DNA of 64,000 nucleotides. Origin: Xanthomonas hyacinthi (GTDB lineage: Bacteria; Pseudomonadota; Gammaproteobacteria; Xanthomonadales; Xanthomonadaceae). The DNA lies in the NCBI RefSeq assembly GCF_009769165.1, contig NZ_CP043476.1, forward strand, positions 992,001-1,056,000. The letters are read 5' to 3'. The notes under the pieces were generated by a model. The model was given only the letters and a program-made list of their open reading frames with translations. It was not told the DNA's origin and searched no databases. The position numbers were made by a program, and so were the translations under genes. Positions within the stretch are counted from its first letter, which is position 1, and the number at the start of each line of letters is the position of its first letter. This document shows, in pieces, positions 39,432 through 49,067 of the stretch.

Positions 39432-40088
39432 CTAGTCGGTCAGGGCGCGAAATCCGCCGACGACGAAGCGCATCATCGTCGGATAGGCGGCGCGCAGGTC
39501 CTCGCTGGCCATCCTGCCGTCCGAAATGATGTCAAGCCCACCGTTGATCGCAAACGCCCCCATGATGACCGAGATGAAGCAGCTGAAAGCCCTTAGCCCA
39601 GCGGCCTTGTCGAGCCGCGGCTCCGCAATCGAAATACGCTCCATCGCCGCAAAGCCGATATCGCGGAAATAGGCCTGCAATAGCGGCATCCAGCGCCTTT
39701 GCTGCTCCAGCACCGCGATGAGCTGGCCGTAGGCGCGCCAACCTGGATCGCCGCTGCTCATCAGTTCAAGGATCGGGCGGGTGAAGGCGTCCATGACGTC
39801 CTCCAGCGTATCGCTCGGGGAAAGCCGCGCGAAGGCGGCGAACTGCGCGTCCTTCAGCGAGCCCGCACGACGTGCGATGACGGCCTCGAGCAATGCCTCC
39901 TTGGCCGGGAAATGGTAAGTGAGCAAGCCCAGCCCGATACCGGCGCCGCTGCTGATGGTGCGCATCGGCACACCATCGAACCCATTCTCGGCGAACAGCC
40001 GTTCAGCCGCATCCAGGATGAGCGCCCTGGATGTGGCGGCATCTCGCTTTACCTTGACGTAATCTCGTTTTACCTTGACGTTGGTCAA
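39432..40088 (-). CDS. TetR/AcrR-family repressor of the catabolic island
   Basis: About 218 residues from a TTG with AAGGAG upstream; the frame can also start at a TTG ten codons earlier. The N-terminal helix-turn-helix is ATSRALILDAAERLFAENGF followed by ISSGAGIGLGLLTYHFPAKEALLEAV. The ligand domain is alpha-helical and unassigned. It lies divergent from the Tat-protein/flavoprotein genes, so it probably regulates them. A 21-bp tandem duplication (40041-40082) near the start repeats VKVKRD twice before the DNA-binding domain. Confidence 0.9.
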   Translation of the reverse strand: MTNVKVKRDYVKVKRDAATSRALILDAAERLFAENGFDGVPMRTISSGAGIGLGLLTYHFPAKEALLEAVIARRAGSLKDAQFAAFARLSPSDTLEDVMDAFTRPILELMSSGDPGWRAYGQLIAVLEQQRRWMPLLQAYFRDIGFAAMERISIAEPRLDKAAGLRAFSCFISVIMGAFAINGGLDIISDGRMASEDLRAAYPTMMRFVVGGFRALTD

Positions 40089-40307
40089 CTCGGCTCCTTC
40101 TCCGTCGGCCTGAGCCAACGATCATTTCACAGGCGTCACGATACCGTCCGCTTCGTAAACAATCGATCAGCGGCAATCGGTCAGACGCCTTCAGAACGAG
40201 GTAGTCCCAGCGCCCGCAAGTGCTGCACTGCACCACGAAAAAAGTTTGACGAACGCCAAAAAACCCATTGACGAAGCGCTTCCGCAACTTTATGGTGCGC
40301 TTGCATT

Positions 40308-40326
40308 GTCGTACGTACGTACAGTT
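40308..40326. promoter_or_regulatory. Candidate TetR operator
   Basis: A perfect 12-base palindrome GTACGTACGTAC at 40311-40322, set in TGTCGTACGTACGTACAGT, lies ~75 bases upstream of the Tat-protein gene and in the divergent gap with the TetR gene. Its length and symmetry suit a TetR-dimer site. The rest of the 313-base gap (40089-40401) shows nothing further. Confidence 0.6.
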
Positions 40327-40401
40327 CCGACCTCCTCAAAAAAGACCAACCGAATCCACCGCGCGAGCCGCAAGTTCGTTCGCTAGAGAAGGATCCGCAC
40401 C

Positions 40402-41022
40402 ATGGCGACCCGTAGAGCATTCATCCAAGGTGTACTCGCGACGAGCACGGCGGCGATCATCGGGTCGGTCCCTATGATCATCGCCGAGTCGCAGGCGAAC
40501 CGACGCCGCTTCCACAGCGTGCTCGTCGATGCACGTTTCCACCAGTGCCTGGCATTTGGAGCGGCCGCCGCGCGTCTCGGCGAGCGCGTCCATTCGTTCA
40601 AGGCCGATCTCAACGACTTCTGGGTCGACAACATCGAACGCGCCGCACCGGGCAAAGGCTTCGCGATCGCCGGCATGACGACCCACAGCGCGCTGTTCTG
40701 CCTTGCGCAGTTGGGGGATCCCAGAATCAACAAGATCGTGCTGATGACCCGGCATGCGTCCGTCGCGGGCGTCTGCCGCCATGAGATCCATGCCGCGCCG
40801 CCCCTCGTGGCGGCGGCAGATGCGCTGCTTGCGGGCGATGACTGGCCGACGCGTTCGGCCCAACTTGCAATTGCGTGTGCCCGGCAGGCCCAGCCCGTAG
40901 CCTCATCGTTCCTCGACGGTCCCGGCGCGAATGCACGGGAACGCGACACGCTTGTCTCATGGGCCATCGTGCCTGTCGATCGCCCCACGCCGTGGGCTCA
41001 GTCATTCGGATCATTCTCATGA
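40402..41022 (+). CDS. Tat-leader protein of unknown function, coupled to the flavoprotein gene
   Basis: A 206-residue protein I cannot assign to a family. The N terminus TRRAFIQGVLATSTAAIIGS has the twin-arginine pattern (RRAFIQG) and a moderate hydrophobic stretch, so export in a folded state is likely. The rest has no visible cofactor motif. Recognisable stretches are FHSVLVDARFHQCLAFG, then HSFKADLNDFW and KIVLMTRHASVAGVCRHE. Its stop overlaps the start of the flavoprotein gene by four bases (ATGA), implying equimolar production and a role in assembly, export or electron transfer of that enzyme. It heads the operon opposite the TetR gene. Confidence 0.8.
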   Translation: MATRRAFIQGVLATSTAAIIGSVPMIIAESQANRRRFHSVLVDARFHQCLAFGAAAARLGERVHSFKADLNDFWVDNIERAAPGKGFAIAGMTTHSALFCLAQLGDPRINKIVLMTRHASVAGVCRHEIHAAPPLVAAADALLAGDDWPTRSAQLAIACARQAQPVASSFLDGPGANARERDTLVSWAIVPVDRPTPWAQSFGSFS

Positions 41023-47328: not shown

Positions 47329-47356
47329 CGCAGCATCGGGTCATCCCGATGCTGCG
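47329..47356 (+). terminator. Strong hairpin after the SDR gene
   Basis: A perfect 12-bp stem CGCAGCATCGGG/CCCGATGCTGCG with a TCAT loop, ~58 bases after the SDR stop. There is no T-run, so it may be a weak terminator or a processing site. The remainder of 47272-47575 shows no gene. Confidence 0.5.
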
Positions 47357-47575
47357 CCCCCCAACGCAGCAACACCGTTGTATGTACATCGTGCCTGCCG
47401 CGCATCAGCGCAGCGCTGCGACGAGCCTTTAGCTCTGAATCGTCGCAGCGATCGTTGCCACTGCCACCGTGCTGCTATTCGGCCGATGGCAGAAGGACGA
47501 TCAAGACAATAGAAGCGCTAGCGCAAGCGGCTGGTGTGTGGACGAGCCATCGATTCCAACTGGGGGAGGAACACC

Positions 47576-48544
47576 ATGAACACATTCAAACGACTCGCTT
47601 TCTCGCTGACCATGGCGCAAGCCTTGTTTCCATGCGCCGCGTGGGCTGGCGAAGGCATCAAAGCTGCCGGGCCGATCGGCGGCACCGACATTCGGCAGGC
47701 CTGGCTGCCCCCGCCTGGGCTCTATGCGGCCGGCGTGGGTATCAGAGGCCGATTCAAGGAGTTTCTAGGGTCGGACCAAGACTACGCTGCCACCGGCGAC
47801 TTCATGGTTGGCGGTGGCGGACTTCTGGCCGTCTACCCCGTTGAAGTATTCGGCGGATCCCTTGCCTCAAGCGTCTTCGTCTCCGGCGGCAAGACCTGCT
47901 TTGGCCTCAAGTCGGGTCGAGAAACCTGTTCGAGAGGCATGGGCGATACGTATGCGGACCTGCTGGTGTGGTCGCGTCTTTTCCCGAGCAAGGGACCCGA
48001 GGCGCAACGCGATCCGCATATTCCGTATGGCCTGCAGGTGCTGTTCGGGCTGGGCGTGAGTTTTCCGAATGGCGTCTACAAATCCTCCAAAGCGGTCAAC
48101 AACGGCAGCAATGTCTATGACACGGCACCGAATGTCGCACTTACCTATACCAGTCCCAGCATCTTCGGTGAAACGCTTGGGGACGCCACCGAGTTCAGCG
48201 TGCGCATGTTCTACAACCACTACAGCCGCAACGACGATACCAACTACCAGAGTGGGGATCTGGTCAGCGCCGATTTCTCGGTCAGCCAACGTGTCAGGCA
48301 GTGGCAGTTCGGGGTCACCGGCACCGGCTATGTTCAGATCGAAGACGACGAGAACGCAGGAGTGAAGGTACCCAATGGCGGCAATCGGGGCCGGCTACTG
48401 CAACTGGGGCCAGTGGTATCTTATGACTATATGGCGAGGGGCCGCCCATGGAACGTCACGCTGAAAGGGTATTTCGCTGCTGGCGGCGAGAACATCGCTT
48501 CCTCCAACATTCTCATTCTTAGAATAGGTACGAAATTGTTCTGA
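47576..48544 (+). CDS. SphA/MetA-type outer-membrane protein for aromatic catabolism
   Basis: A 322-residue protein of the phenol-degradation MetA group, beta-barrel channels found in aromatic pathways. A signal peptide ends near PCAAWAGEG. The mature protein is rich in alternating strands with aromatic ends (LGVSFPNGVYKSS, SVRMFYNHYSRND) and finishes ILRIGTKLF with a terminal Phe, as outer-membrane barrels do. The ATG follows GGGGGAGGA. It probably admits the phenolic substrate to the periplasm where the flavocytochrome acts. Confidence 0.85.
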   Translation: MNTFKRLAFSLTMAQALFPCAAWAGEGIKAAGPIGGTDIRQAWLPPPGLYAAGVGIRGRFKEFLGSDQDYAATGDFMVGGGGLLAVYPVEVFGGSLASSVFVSGGKTCFGLKSGRETCSRGMGDTYADLLVWSRLFPSKGPEAQRDPHIPYGLQVLFGLGVSFPNGVYKSSKAVNNGSNVYDTAPNVALTYTSPSIFGETLGDATEFSVRMFYNHYSRNDDTNYQSGDLVSADFSVSQRVRQWQFGVTGTGYVQIEDDENAGVKVPNGGNRGRLLQLGPVVSYDYMARGRPWNVTLKGYFAAGGENIASSNILILRIGTKLF

Positions 48545-48620
48545 GCTTCACGGTACCGAGGCCAACGCGTTGGCCTCACCCAAACTCCATTCAAATAAAA
48601 TTATTAGCAGGACAATAAAC

Positions 48621-49067
48621 ATGATTCGTAATCTCATTGCCGCTTCCGTACTTTTTATGGCATTCAATACATCGATGGCGGCGGAATGCAAGGCTACTGT
48701 CGACTCCAATGACCAGATGTCCTTCAATACCAAGCACATCGATATCCCAAAGGCCTGCAAGACCTTCACTGTCACCCTCACCCACTCCGGCAAATTGCCG
48801 CGGAACGTCATGGGTCATAACTGGGTGCTGAGTAAAGAGGCCGACATACAGTCGATCGCCACCGACGGCACGGGCGCTGGTCTTGGCAAGAATTACCTGA
48901 AAGATGGCGACGCGCGCATCATCGCCCATACCAAAATCATCGGCCCGAAAGAGTCGGATTCGGTGACATTTCCCGTCTCGAAACTTTCCCCGGGCGAAAA
49001 ATACGGCTTCTTCTGCTCGTTCCCAGGCCATTTCAGCATGATGAAAGGCAGCGTGGACCTGAAGTAG
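48621..49067 (+). CDS. Azurin
   Basis: A 148-residue blue copper protein with a ~20-residue signal peptide (cleavage before AECKATV). The type-1 copper ligands are all present: His in GHNWV, and Cys, His and Met in CSFPGHFSMM. The two cysteines of the conserved disulfide (AEC and PKAC) are also there. It is a periplasmic one-electron carrier. Azurin has been reported as an electron acceptor for p-cresol methylhydroxylase in Pseudomonas putida, so its place at the end of this island suggests a dedicated acceptor for the flavocytochrome. Its GC content is noticeably below the window average. Confidence 0.95.
   Translation: MIRNLIAASVLFMAFNTSMAAECKATVDSNDQMSFNTKHIDIPKACKTFTVTLTHSGKLPRNVMGHNWVLSKEADIQSIATDGTGAGLGKNYLKDGDARIIAHTKIIGPKESDSVTFPVSKLSPGEKYGFFCSFPGHFSMMKGSVDLK

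What the first reader, a model, noticed from the sequence alone, without database searches (positions are those of the whole stretch)
39432..49067. Catabolic island for a para-alkylphenol or phenolic ester, bracketed by IS relics
Nine genes form a coherent pathway unit: TetR, Tat-protein, PCMH-type flavoprotein, cytochrome c, MFS, CocE-type esterase, SDR, MetA-type porin and azurin. It is flanked on the left by an IS4-type and on the right by an IS3-type transposase relic. Base composition is lower in GC than the surrounding core genes, clearest in azurin. I know of no described Xanthomonas system combining these parts. The esterase plus flavocytochrome suggests release of a phenol from a conjugate followed by side-chain oxidation.
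Basis: partly seen in the sequence, partly recalled or inferred. Interest (0 to 1): 0.88.

Follow-up and report, generated by a model that had tools for sequence, protein, structure and literature searches.

The report
Phenol-eating island with an export escort
A Xanthomonas-type bacterium carries a set of foreign genes for attacking plant-type phenols, and an unnamed small protein in the set probably carries the key enzyme out through the cell membrane; relatives of that small protein sit beside this kind of enzyme in many bacteria.

Summary
The nine genes, the lower GC and both IS relics are real. The island is foreign: a full-length flavoprotein match occurs in 1 of 20 same-genus genomes, its own. 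Relatives of TetR, flavoprotein, cytochrome c, CocE and SDR occur together in one other genome, apparently a sphingomonad. The core is a coupled trio: Tat-signal protein, VAO/PCMH flavoprotein without a signal peptide, cytochrome c. Six site residues fit a para-phenol dehydrogenase. Azurin, a known acceptor of p-cresol methylhydroxylase, completes the chain. The surprise is the 'Tat-protein'. It looks orphan (2 hits), yet divergent homologues lie beside 96 of 123 such flavoproteins, and 6 others carry a Tat signal themselves, never with the partner. Best reading: it is the Tat escort that takes the folded, signal-less flavoprotein to the periplasm; a 2025 paper on a related enzyme proposed the cytochrome's signal peptide instead. 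The substrate is unknown, and nothing was tested at the bench.

The parts
39023..39371 (.). IS4-family (ISXac1-like) relic, left edge
   Evidence: 67% identity over 349 bp to annotated ISXac1 transposase in Xanthomonas plasmids
39432..40118 (-). TetR-family regulator, divergent from the operon
   Evidence: Pfam TetR_N 6e-15, TetR_C_30 3e-16; a 51% identical TetR lies near CocE-SDR in genome G1212
40311..40322 (.). perfect palindrome GTACGTACGTAC, candidate TetR operator
   Evidence: 1 match in window, 0 in 100 shuffles; not found in the G1212 locus, so its function is inference
40402..41022 (+). Tat206: twin-arginine signal protein, proposed Tat escort of the flavoprotein
   Evidence: RR signal; no Pfam/NCBIfam domain; synteny, HMM, profile and model evidence
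41019..42635 (+). VAO/PCMH-family 4-phenol dehydrogenase flavoprotein, no signal peptide
   Evidence: PDB hits E 6e-167 (9h40) and 2e-123 (8s7p); site residues Y93, D152, P153, H397, Y483, R484
42632..43126 (+). c-type cytochrome subunit, overlaps the flavoprotein gene by 4 bases
   Evidence: Pfam Cytochrome_CBB3 1e-16
43172..44461 (+). MFS transporter
   Evidence: Pfam MFS_1 4e-36
44667..46409 (+). CocE/NonD-family hydrolase, no visible signal peptide
   Evidence: NCBIfam TIGR00976 249 bits; 57% relative in genome G1212
46423..47271 (+). short-chain dehydrogenase (SDR)
   Evidence: Pfam adh_short 2e-39; 60% relative directly downstream of the G1212 CocE
47329..47356 (.). hairpin (12-bp arms, 4-nt loop) between SDR and porin, possible transcript end
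   Evidence: the terminator scan, which asks for a T run, did not report it
47576..48544 (+). Phenol_MetA_deg outer-membrane protein
   Evidence: Pfam PF13557 3e-25; also in the p-cresol-type operon of L044
48621..49067 (+). azurin, probable electron acceptor of the flavocytochrome
   Evidence: TIGR02695 over cut-off; 48-56% to nine native genus azurins, which are 88-98% alike
49156..49896 (-). IS3-family transposase relic, right edge
   Evidence: 77-81% to IS3 transposases; Pfam rve 1.5e-9

Best explanation
The block is a horizontally acquired catabolic island at a rearrangement point beside the pob/pca (4-hydroxybenzoate/protocatechuate) genes. Its engine is a periplasmic flavocytochrome for a para-substituted phenol. 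Proposed steps: (1) a phenolic substrate enters through the MetA-type porin; (2) the flavoprotein folds and takes up FAD in the cytoplasm, binds the Tat206 protein made from the overlapping gene upstream, and is carried through the Tat translocon on Tat206's twin-arginine signal (hitchhiker export); (3) in the periplasm it pairs with the separately exported cytochrome c, oxidises the benzylic carbon through a quinone methide (known chemistry of this family), and passes electrons via cytochrome c and azurin to the respiratory chain; (4) the MFS brings the product in; (5) SDR and CocE finish it in the cytoplasm (alcohol oxidation, ester hydrolysis), feeding the neighbouring pob/pca route. Shown by computation: gene content, foreign origin, flavoprotein family and site residues, coupled trio, partner-flavoprotein association and partner homology. 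Inferred: that the partner is an escort, the order of steps, the products. Unknown: the substrate.
For: Full-length flavoprotein match in 1 of 20 genus genomes; island azurin foreign. Best relatives among the 120 listed are 58-65% (Paracoccus, Sphingorhabdus, Sphingobium and unnamed contigs). Site residues kept. Tat partner within 2.6 kb on the same strand in 96 of 123 loci, against 2 of 37 low-identity controls, and those two are second pieces of genuine family members (L070, L071). In 71 of 74 upstream cases the partner ends within -110 to +10 bases of the flavoprotein's aligned start. Six flavoproteins carry their own Tat signal, in three separate parts of the tree, none with a partner found, while 0 of 96 partner loci have a cis signal by the motif used (Fisher p 7e-5, uncorrected for kinship). 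With signals removed, window-type and p-cresol-type partners match by profile: 96.2% probability, E 2e-9; best of 40 column-shuffles 2.9%. AlphaFold gives both the same strand-helix order, the second with two extra strands. Loci with a cytochrome gene have a Tat element in 93 of 101, those without in 15 of 22. Two actinobacterial loci without an annotated cytochrome c show no RR ORF by the motif used. A passage of PMC12724174 says BpfA lacks a signal peptide, with the same pattern in PchCF and PcmIG, that PchCF is periplasmic, and that it relies on carriers such as azurin.
Against: Fifteen of 123 loci show neither partner nor cis signal, 8 of them with a cytochrome gene, and two of those (L039, L049) have 10-kb flanks; only 29 of 123 loci have 5 kb on both sides. 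A model trained on the window's own clade with signals removed recognised partners in only 17 of 78 held-out loci, so most membership rests on position plus iteration. Fourteen of 22 loci without a detected cytochrome gene still have the partner. No experiment and no complex model ties Tat206 to the flavoprotein. Porin and azurin sit behind a hairpin and differ in GC, so they may be a separate acquisition. The palindrome is not conserved.
Confidence: 0.66

Rival explanations
1. Tat206 is exported by Tat on its own and works in the periplasm as a maturation factor or small structural subunit of the flavocytochrome (for example docking the cytochrome), not as the export vehicle.
For: It has a folded mature domain of about 170 residues with conserved motifs (GLT...LF.L, C-terminal SW(V/I)xAP); the gene also occurs at 14 of 22 loci without a detected cytochrome gene.
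Against: It leaves the export of the signal-less flavoprotein unexplained, and does not explain why no partner was found where the flavoprotein has its own Tat signal.
Confidence: 0.2
2. The flavoprotein is carried out by the cytochrome's own signal peptide (the suggestion in PMC12724174 for BpfAB), or it stays cytoplasmic.
For: Stated in the literature for BpfAB (passage); the cytochrome gene is coupled to the flavoprotein gene.
Against: c-type cytochromes leave unfolded and receive heme outside (established knowledge), so they could hardly pull out a folded FAD protein; the like-arranged cluster of S. yanoikuyae SJTF8 carries a Tat-signal 'hypothetical' protein overlapping the cytochrome gene; cis-Tat flavoproteins exist.
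Confidence: 0.07
3. One reading: CocE releases a phenol from an ester first, then the flavocytochrome oxidises its side chain.
For: CocE and the flavocytochrome lie in one run of genes; CocE-family enzymes hydrolyse esters and amides (family knowledge).
Against: CocE and SDR begin without a visible signal peptide (sequence by eye), so they should act in the cytoplasm after the periplasmic step; in genome G1212 CocE is paired with SDR, not with the flavoprotein.
Confidence: 0.15
4. The nine genes are not one pathway: TetR to SDR is one unit, while porin and azurin are a second, unrelated passenger.
For: GC drops from about 0.64 to 0.588 and 0.510; hairpin and 262-bp gap between SDR and the listed porin ORF.
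Against: Azurin accepts electrons from p-cresol methylhydroxylase (cited in PMC12724174); a Roseomonas plasmid has SDR then pseudoazurin after the same trio; the p-cresol-type operon L044 also has a MetA-type porin.
Confidence: 0.3

Closest known systems
p-Cresol methylhydroxylase operon (pchA-C-X-F type)
   Same: Flavoprotein of the same family plus a small c-type cytochrome; a Tat-signal ORF next to the flavoprotein gene; MetA-type porin; azurin as acceptor in the literature. L044 (P. thermotolerans) has AraC regulator, porin, Aldedh, cytochrome, Tat protein, flavoprotein. The gene name pchX and the order pchACXF are recalled, not read.
   Different: The window has the order Tat-flavoprotein-cytochrome, no aldehyde dehydrogenase in the island, and adds MFS, CocE and SDR. 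At the flavin site it has D152 where PCMH has A154, and a His at the VAD H387 position; the proline (P153/P155) is shared.
Pinoresinol alpha-hydroxylase PinAB and imperanene oxidase PinVW (lignan catabolism)
   Same: Translationally coupled flavocytochromes (passages); 10 of the 120 listed relatives bear the source name '(+)-pinoresinol hydroxylase'.
   Different: The island has no lignostilbene dioxygenase (PinU type) among its nine genes. PinA and PinW sequences were not held, so clade membership was not tested.
Bisphenol F cluster bpfABCD of Sphingobium
   Same: Flavoprotein + cytochrome c + hydrolase; a Tat-signal hypothetical protein follows the cytochrome in the like-arranged cluster of strain SJTF8.
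   Different: It has a further FAD oxidoreductase (annotated NAD(P)/FAD-dependent; BpfC of DN12 is called a BVMO) that the window lacks; flavoprotein 40% identical.
FAD-glucose dehydrogenase gamma subunit (Tat hitchhiker)
   Same: Small Tat-signal protein encoded with a FAD catalytic subunit and a heme c subunit; described as needed for folding and secretion (passages).
   Different: The gamma subunit contains five alpha-helices (passage); Tat206 is modelled as mixed alpha/beta. Likeness of role, not shown descent.

Membership tests
VAO/PCMH 4-phenol oxidising flavoproteins | Full-length similarity to solved members | tested here: met
   E 6e-167 to 9h40, 2e-123 to 8s7p, 8.5e-86 to PCMH 1dii
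VAO/PCMH 4-phenol oxidising flavoproteins | Phenolate-binding Tyr (VAO Y108) and Tyr-Arg pair (Y503/R504) | tested here: met
   Y93, Y483, R484; these columns are Y in 123 of 123, Y in 117 of 123, R in 118 of 123; VAO numbering is recalled
Cytochrome-dependent dehydrogenase rather than oxidase | Proline next to flavin N5 and a cytochrome c gene alongside | tested here: met
   P153 aligns with VAD P151; cytochrome gene overlaps
p-Cresol methylhydroxylase proper | Ala before the N5 proline (A154/P155) | tested here: not met
   Window has D152/P153
p-Cresol methylhydroxylase proper | Tyrosyl-linked FAD (Y384) | not tested
   PCMH sequence not aligned here; the window has a His at the VAD H387 column, which points to His-linked FAD
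Pinoresinol hydroxylase clade | Groups with characterised PinA in a tree | not tested
   PinA sequence not held; only source names point that way
Tat hitchhiker (escort) | Own twin-arginine signal | tested here: met
   RR motif in all 24 aligned homologues; Pfam TAT_signal in 8 of 24, NCBIfam TAT_signal_seq in 2 of 24
Tat hitchhiker (escort) | Co-encoded with a cofactor-bearing partner that lacks a signal | tested here: met
   96 of 123 loci; 0 of these 96 flavoproteins with a cis Tat signal by the motif used
Tat hitchhiker (escort) | Binds the partner and is required for its export | not testable with these tools
   needs an experiment or a complex model
FAD-GDH gamma family | Shared fold or sequence | tested here: inconclusive
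Acquired genomic island | Sporadic in relatives, deviant composition, mobile-element edges | tested here: met
   1 of 20 genomes, lower GC, IS4 and IS3 relics

The most novel reading that the evidence does not exclude
There is an undescribed, fast-diverging protein family (the window's Tat206; the gene between cytochrome and flavoprotein in p-cresol-type operons) whose job is to carry cytochrome-linked 4-phenol dehydrogenases, folded and FAD-loaded, through the Tat translocon. It explains how p-cresol methylhydroxylase and its kin for lignans, eugenol and bisphenol F reach the periplasm without a signal peptide. Some lineages dispense with it by fusing the Tat signal to the enzyme.
Probability: 0.6. 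Interest if true: 0.75.

Novelty: new variant of a known kind. Interest (0 to 1): 0.62.

Why it matters
p-Cresol methylhydroxylase was reported as periplasmic in 1985 (Hopper et al., cited in PMC12724174), yet its flavoprotein shows no export signal, and a 2025 paper proposes for a related enzyme that the cytochrome's signal peptide does the work. If a dedicated Tat escort exists, the question can be tested with one gene deletion. It could also explain poor yields of such enzymes made without the escort and give a missing part for engineering lignin, lignan or bisphenol degradation. For Xanthomonas, it adds an acquired phenol-oxidising route wired to azurin beside the pob/pca genes.

Tried and rejected
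Tat206 as an orphan: a search of 5.8 billion proteins gave only itself and one relative, and tblastn against plasmids at E <= 0.01 gave nothing. Rejected after synteny showed divergent counterparts, also in plasmids.

First count of Tat ORFs by a strict motif upstream only left many cytochrome-bearing loci without one; inspection and the profile showed the gene lies downstream of the cytochrome in one branch. L200's cis hit was rejected by eye as not a Tat signal and counted as none; six loci with an RR ORF below the model threshold were set apart by eye as 'weak'.

A hydrophobicity test for signals on flavoproteins (cut-off 1.6) was useless, as it missed the cis cases too; I do not use it.

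Conserved operator: palindrome absent from the G1212 locus with up to 2 mismatches, and exact matches in the fetched loci only in copies of the window's own region. No Rfam match at gathering score in 36000-52000. The near-DNA search of the whole island in plasmids found nothing. The CocE protein search in plasmids at E <= 1e-40 found nothing. Simple empty-site test: pobR and pntAA are far apart in G003, so no clean empty site is expected; the window joins two chromosome regions there. Naming G1212: its CocE region matched plasmids only in short stretches; its family f223 was taken as sphingomonads because another member's locus (L195) is 81-93% identical to Novosphingobium and Sphingobium plasmid DNA in the best hits, which is an inference.

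Print searches on the Tat partner of PCMH: pchX or p-cresol methylhydroxylase; 61 papers hold one or both terms, none of the 30 listed holds both; hitchhiker, twin-arginine, flavoprotein and others; none of the 8 listed is about PCMH by its title. Searches failed by time-out, so absence from print is not established.

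
Full report
CHECK OF THE OBSERVATION. The main block 39432-47271 has GC 0.62-0.67 per gene, the porin 0.588, azurin 0.510, the window 0.675. The left edge resembles IS4-like ISXac1 (67% over 349 bp); the right edge is an IS3 transposase relic (77-81% in the listed hits; Pfam rve). The window lies at 992001-1056000 of contig 1 of a 4.96-Mb genome.

FOREIGN ORIGIN. A full-length match to the flavoprotein occurs in 1 of 20 same-genus genomes, its own; all 20 show distant GlcD-like hits. 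In a spread of 151 genomes of the order, 2 have a match at E <= 1e-60, the other at 38%. Among 120 listed relatives the best are 58-65% identical, the named ones in Paracoccus yeei, Sphingorhabdus lacus, Sphingobium and Sphingomonas paucimobilis. Azurin occurs in 17 of 20 genus genomes, own included; the nine others compared are 88-98% alike and only 48-56% identical to the island copy. pobR is found in 13 of 20 genus genomes and pntAA in 20 of 20; in G003 they lie at 0.49 and 4.22 Mb. In a DNA alignment with seven fetched stretches from five relatives, window 32740-38910 matches one region of G003 and about 49910 onward the pntAA region of all five, with no match over 150 bases to the island between. 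The island thus sits at a rearrangement point. Pfam puts a protocatechuate-dioxygenase-type gene and an adenylosuccinate-lyase-type gene (pcaB-like by recall) at 31-34 kb; pobA and pcaIJ are named from their sequences by recall.

THE ENZYME. The flavoprotein matches solved 4-phenol oxidising enzymes over its whole length. Aligned to vanillyl-alcohol dehydrogenase (VAD, 8s7p), it has D152/P153 and H397 where VAD has D150/P151 and H387; those numbers are in PMC7617285 (passages). That paper describes VAD as a dehydrogenase with the flavin-linking histidine of the oxidases and the N5 proline of the dehydrogenases. The substrate-site Tyr, Tyr and Arg are kept. So it is most likely a cytochrome-using dehydrogenase of para-substituted phenols with His-linked FAD, not PCMH in the narrow sense.

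THE TAT PROTEIN. The gene 40402-41022 overlaps the flavoprotein gene by ATGA, and that gene overlaps the cytochrome gene by 4 bases. Its product has a twin-arginine signal and no known domain. A search of 5.8 billion proteins found 2 hits, one being itself. Reading upstream of other flavoproteins, however, showed an RR-signal ORF again and again, from Campylobacter to Geobacter. A profile iterated on these finds 109 ORFs at E < 1e-3 among 7720 with the signal cut off, and none among the reversed ORFs; 95 of the 109 lie within 800 bases of a flavoprotein in that table, the other 14 were not checked one by one; of Tat-like ORFs under 300 aa, 81 of 93 near a flavoprotein are hits and 0 of 6 far from one. 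Circularity must be weighed: trained only on the window's clade with signals removed, the profile found partners in 17 of 78 held-out loci. Independent support comes from profile-profile comparison of signal-free alignments: window type against p-cresol type 96.2%, E 2.3e-9, 147 columns; best of 40 column-shuffled controls 2.9%, reversed 0.1%; window type against Campylobacter/Helicobacter type 86.8% over 56 columns. AlphaFold models of the window protein (mean pLDDT 78.8) and the P. thermotolerans partner (82.8) show the same strand and helix order, the second with two extra strands.

COUNTS. Of 210 flavoprotein places, 123 passed the filters (at least 31% identity, 440 aligned residues, 1.4-kb flanks on both sides); 87 were dropped, 37 of them used as low-identity controls and 50 left out for short flanks or short matches. 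Of the 123: 96 have a partner (74 upstream, 22 downstream), 6 have a Tat signal on the flavoprotein itself, 6 have an RR ORF below the threshold, 15 have nothing. With a cytochrome gene, 93 of 101 have a Tat element; without, 15 of 22 (p 0.006, not corrected for kinship). Of the 37 controls, 34 have neither partner nor cytochrome, 1 a cytochrome, 2 both; the two are second pieces of genuine members in L070 and L071. The cis cases fall in three separate parts of the flavoprotein tree, and none has a partner in the flank held (1.5 kb for five, over 9 kb for L057; Fisher p 7e-5, not corrected for kinship). Of eight plasmid records that I picked from the hit list and read with their annotation, six proteobacterial ones have an RR-signal 'hypothetical protein' beside the flavoprotein, two of them weak matches to the profile (E 4.5e-4 and 7.6e-4), and two actinobacterial ones have none.

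HOW IT PROBABLY WORKS. The flavoprotein takes up FAD, has no signal, and works with a periplasmic cytochrome. A Tat escort solves this, as described for the gamma subunit of FAD-glucose dehydrogenase (PMC6719666, passages). The interchange of partner and cis signal is what one expects if the partner's signal is what the enzyme needs. PMC12724174 (passages) notes the lack of a signal in BpfA, with the same pattern in PchCF and PcmIG, and proposes that BpfAB is guided to the periplasm by the cytochrome's signal peptide; the like-arranged cluster of another strain, SJTF8, carries a Tat-signal protein of this family directly after the cytochrome gene (weak match). Azurin as electron carrier for PCMH is cited there too. 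CocE and SDR show no signal peptide by eye, so hydrolysis and alcohol oxidation should follow uptake.

NEIGHBOURHOODS. Roseomonas plasmid: ornithine cyclodeaminase, semialdehyde dehydrogenase, DHDPS-type, Tat protein, flavoprotein, cytochrome, SDR, pseudoazurin. Genome G1212 (family f223, sphingomonads by inference): cyclodeaminase, DHDPS-type, aldehyde dehydrogenase, CocE (57%), SDR (60%), TonB receptor, TetR (51%) on one contig; flavoprotein (59%) with cytochrome (60%), VanA_C-type Rieske oxygenase and MFS (33%) on another. The upstream side of its two closest flavoproteins is cut by contig ends, so a partner could not be seen there, though a third copy (54%) has one. G183: intradiol dioxygenase, Fe-type dehydrogenase and GMC oxidoreductase beside the trio. 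P. thermotolerans: AraC, MetA porin, aldehyde dehydrogenase, cytochrome, Tat protein, flavoprotein. CocE was found at E <= 1e-30 in 2 of 34 genomes tested, the window's own and G1212. These point to aromatic side-chain catabolism but do not fix the substrate.

LIMITS. No experiment. Counts include related sequences. Only 29 of 123 loci have 5-kb flanks on both sides. The alignment search for more partners could not be made. The literature check is incomplete, as several searches timed out; papers were seen as passages or abstracts only.

Noticed in passing
L034, L036, L037, L038, L069, L070: Campylobacter and Helicobacter genomes carry the same trio (Tat partner of 125-204 aa, flavoprotein about 50% identical, cytochrome c), which suggests that phenols such as p-cresol or lignan products may serve them as electron donors. 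In C. coli LMG 9860 (L070) the flavoprotein match is split in pieces, as if broken.
   Followed up: partly
L161, L162, L166, L167, L168, L198, L057, L151: Flavoproteins of this family with a Tat signal fused to the enzyme and no partner gene seen in the flank held.
   Followed up: yes
window 32740-49910: pob/pca genes and pntAA are joined here although far apart in G003; the island with its IS relics lies at the joint.
   Followed up: partly
L135, L136, L137 (G183, one 90-kb contig): Three different Tat-flavoprotein-cytochrome trios within about 40 kb of one genome, with a CoA-transferase-like pair (by eye), an intradiol dioxygenase, GMC and MFS genes: a rich aromatic catabolic region.
   Followed up: partly
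L223 (G1349), 2465-6600: The trio lies beside genes that read like the protocatechuate 4,5-cleavage (lig) set; named by eye from the sequences, not scanned.
   Followed up: no
L125, L132, L154, L155: A few close flavoprotein relatives show neither a cytochrome gene nor a Tat element within 1.5 kb; possible cytoplasmic oxidases.
   Followed up: no
window 13000-16500: Second GC dip (about 0.54-0.61) beside type IV pilus genes (T2SSF at 15690, prepilin peptidase at 17067).
   Followed up: no
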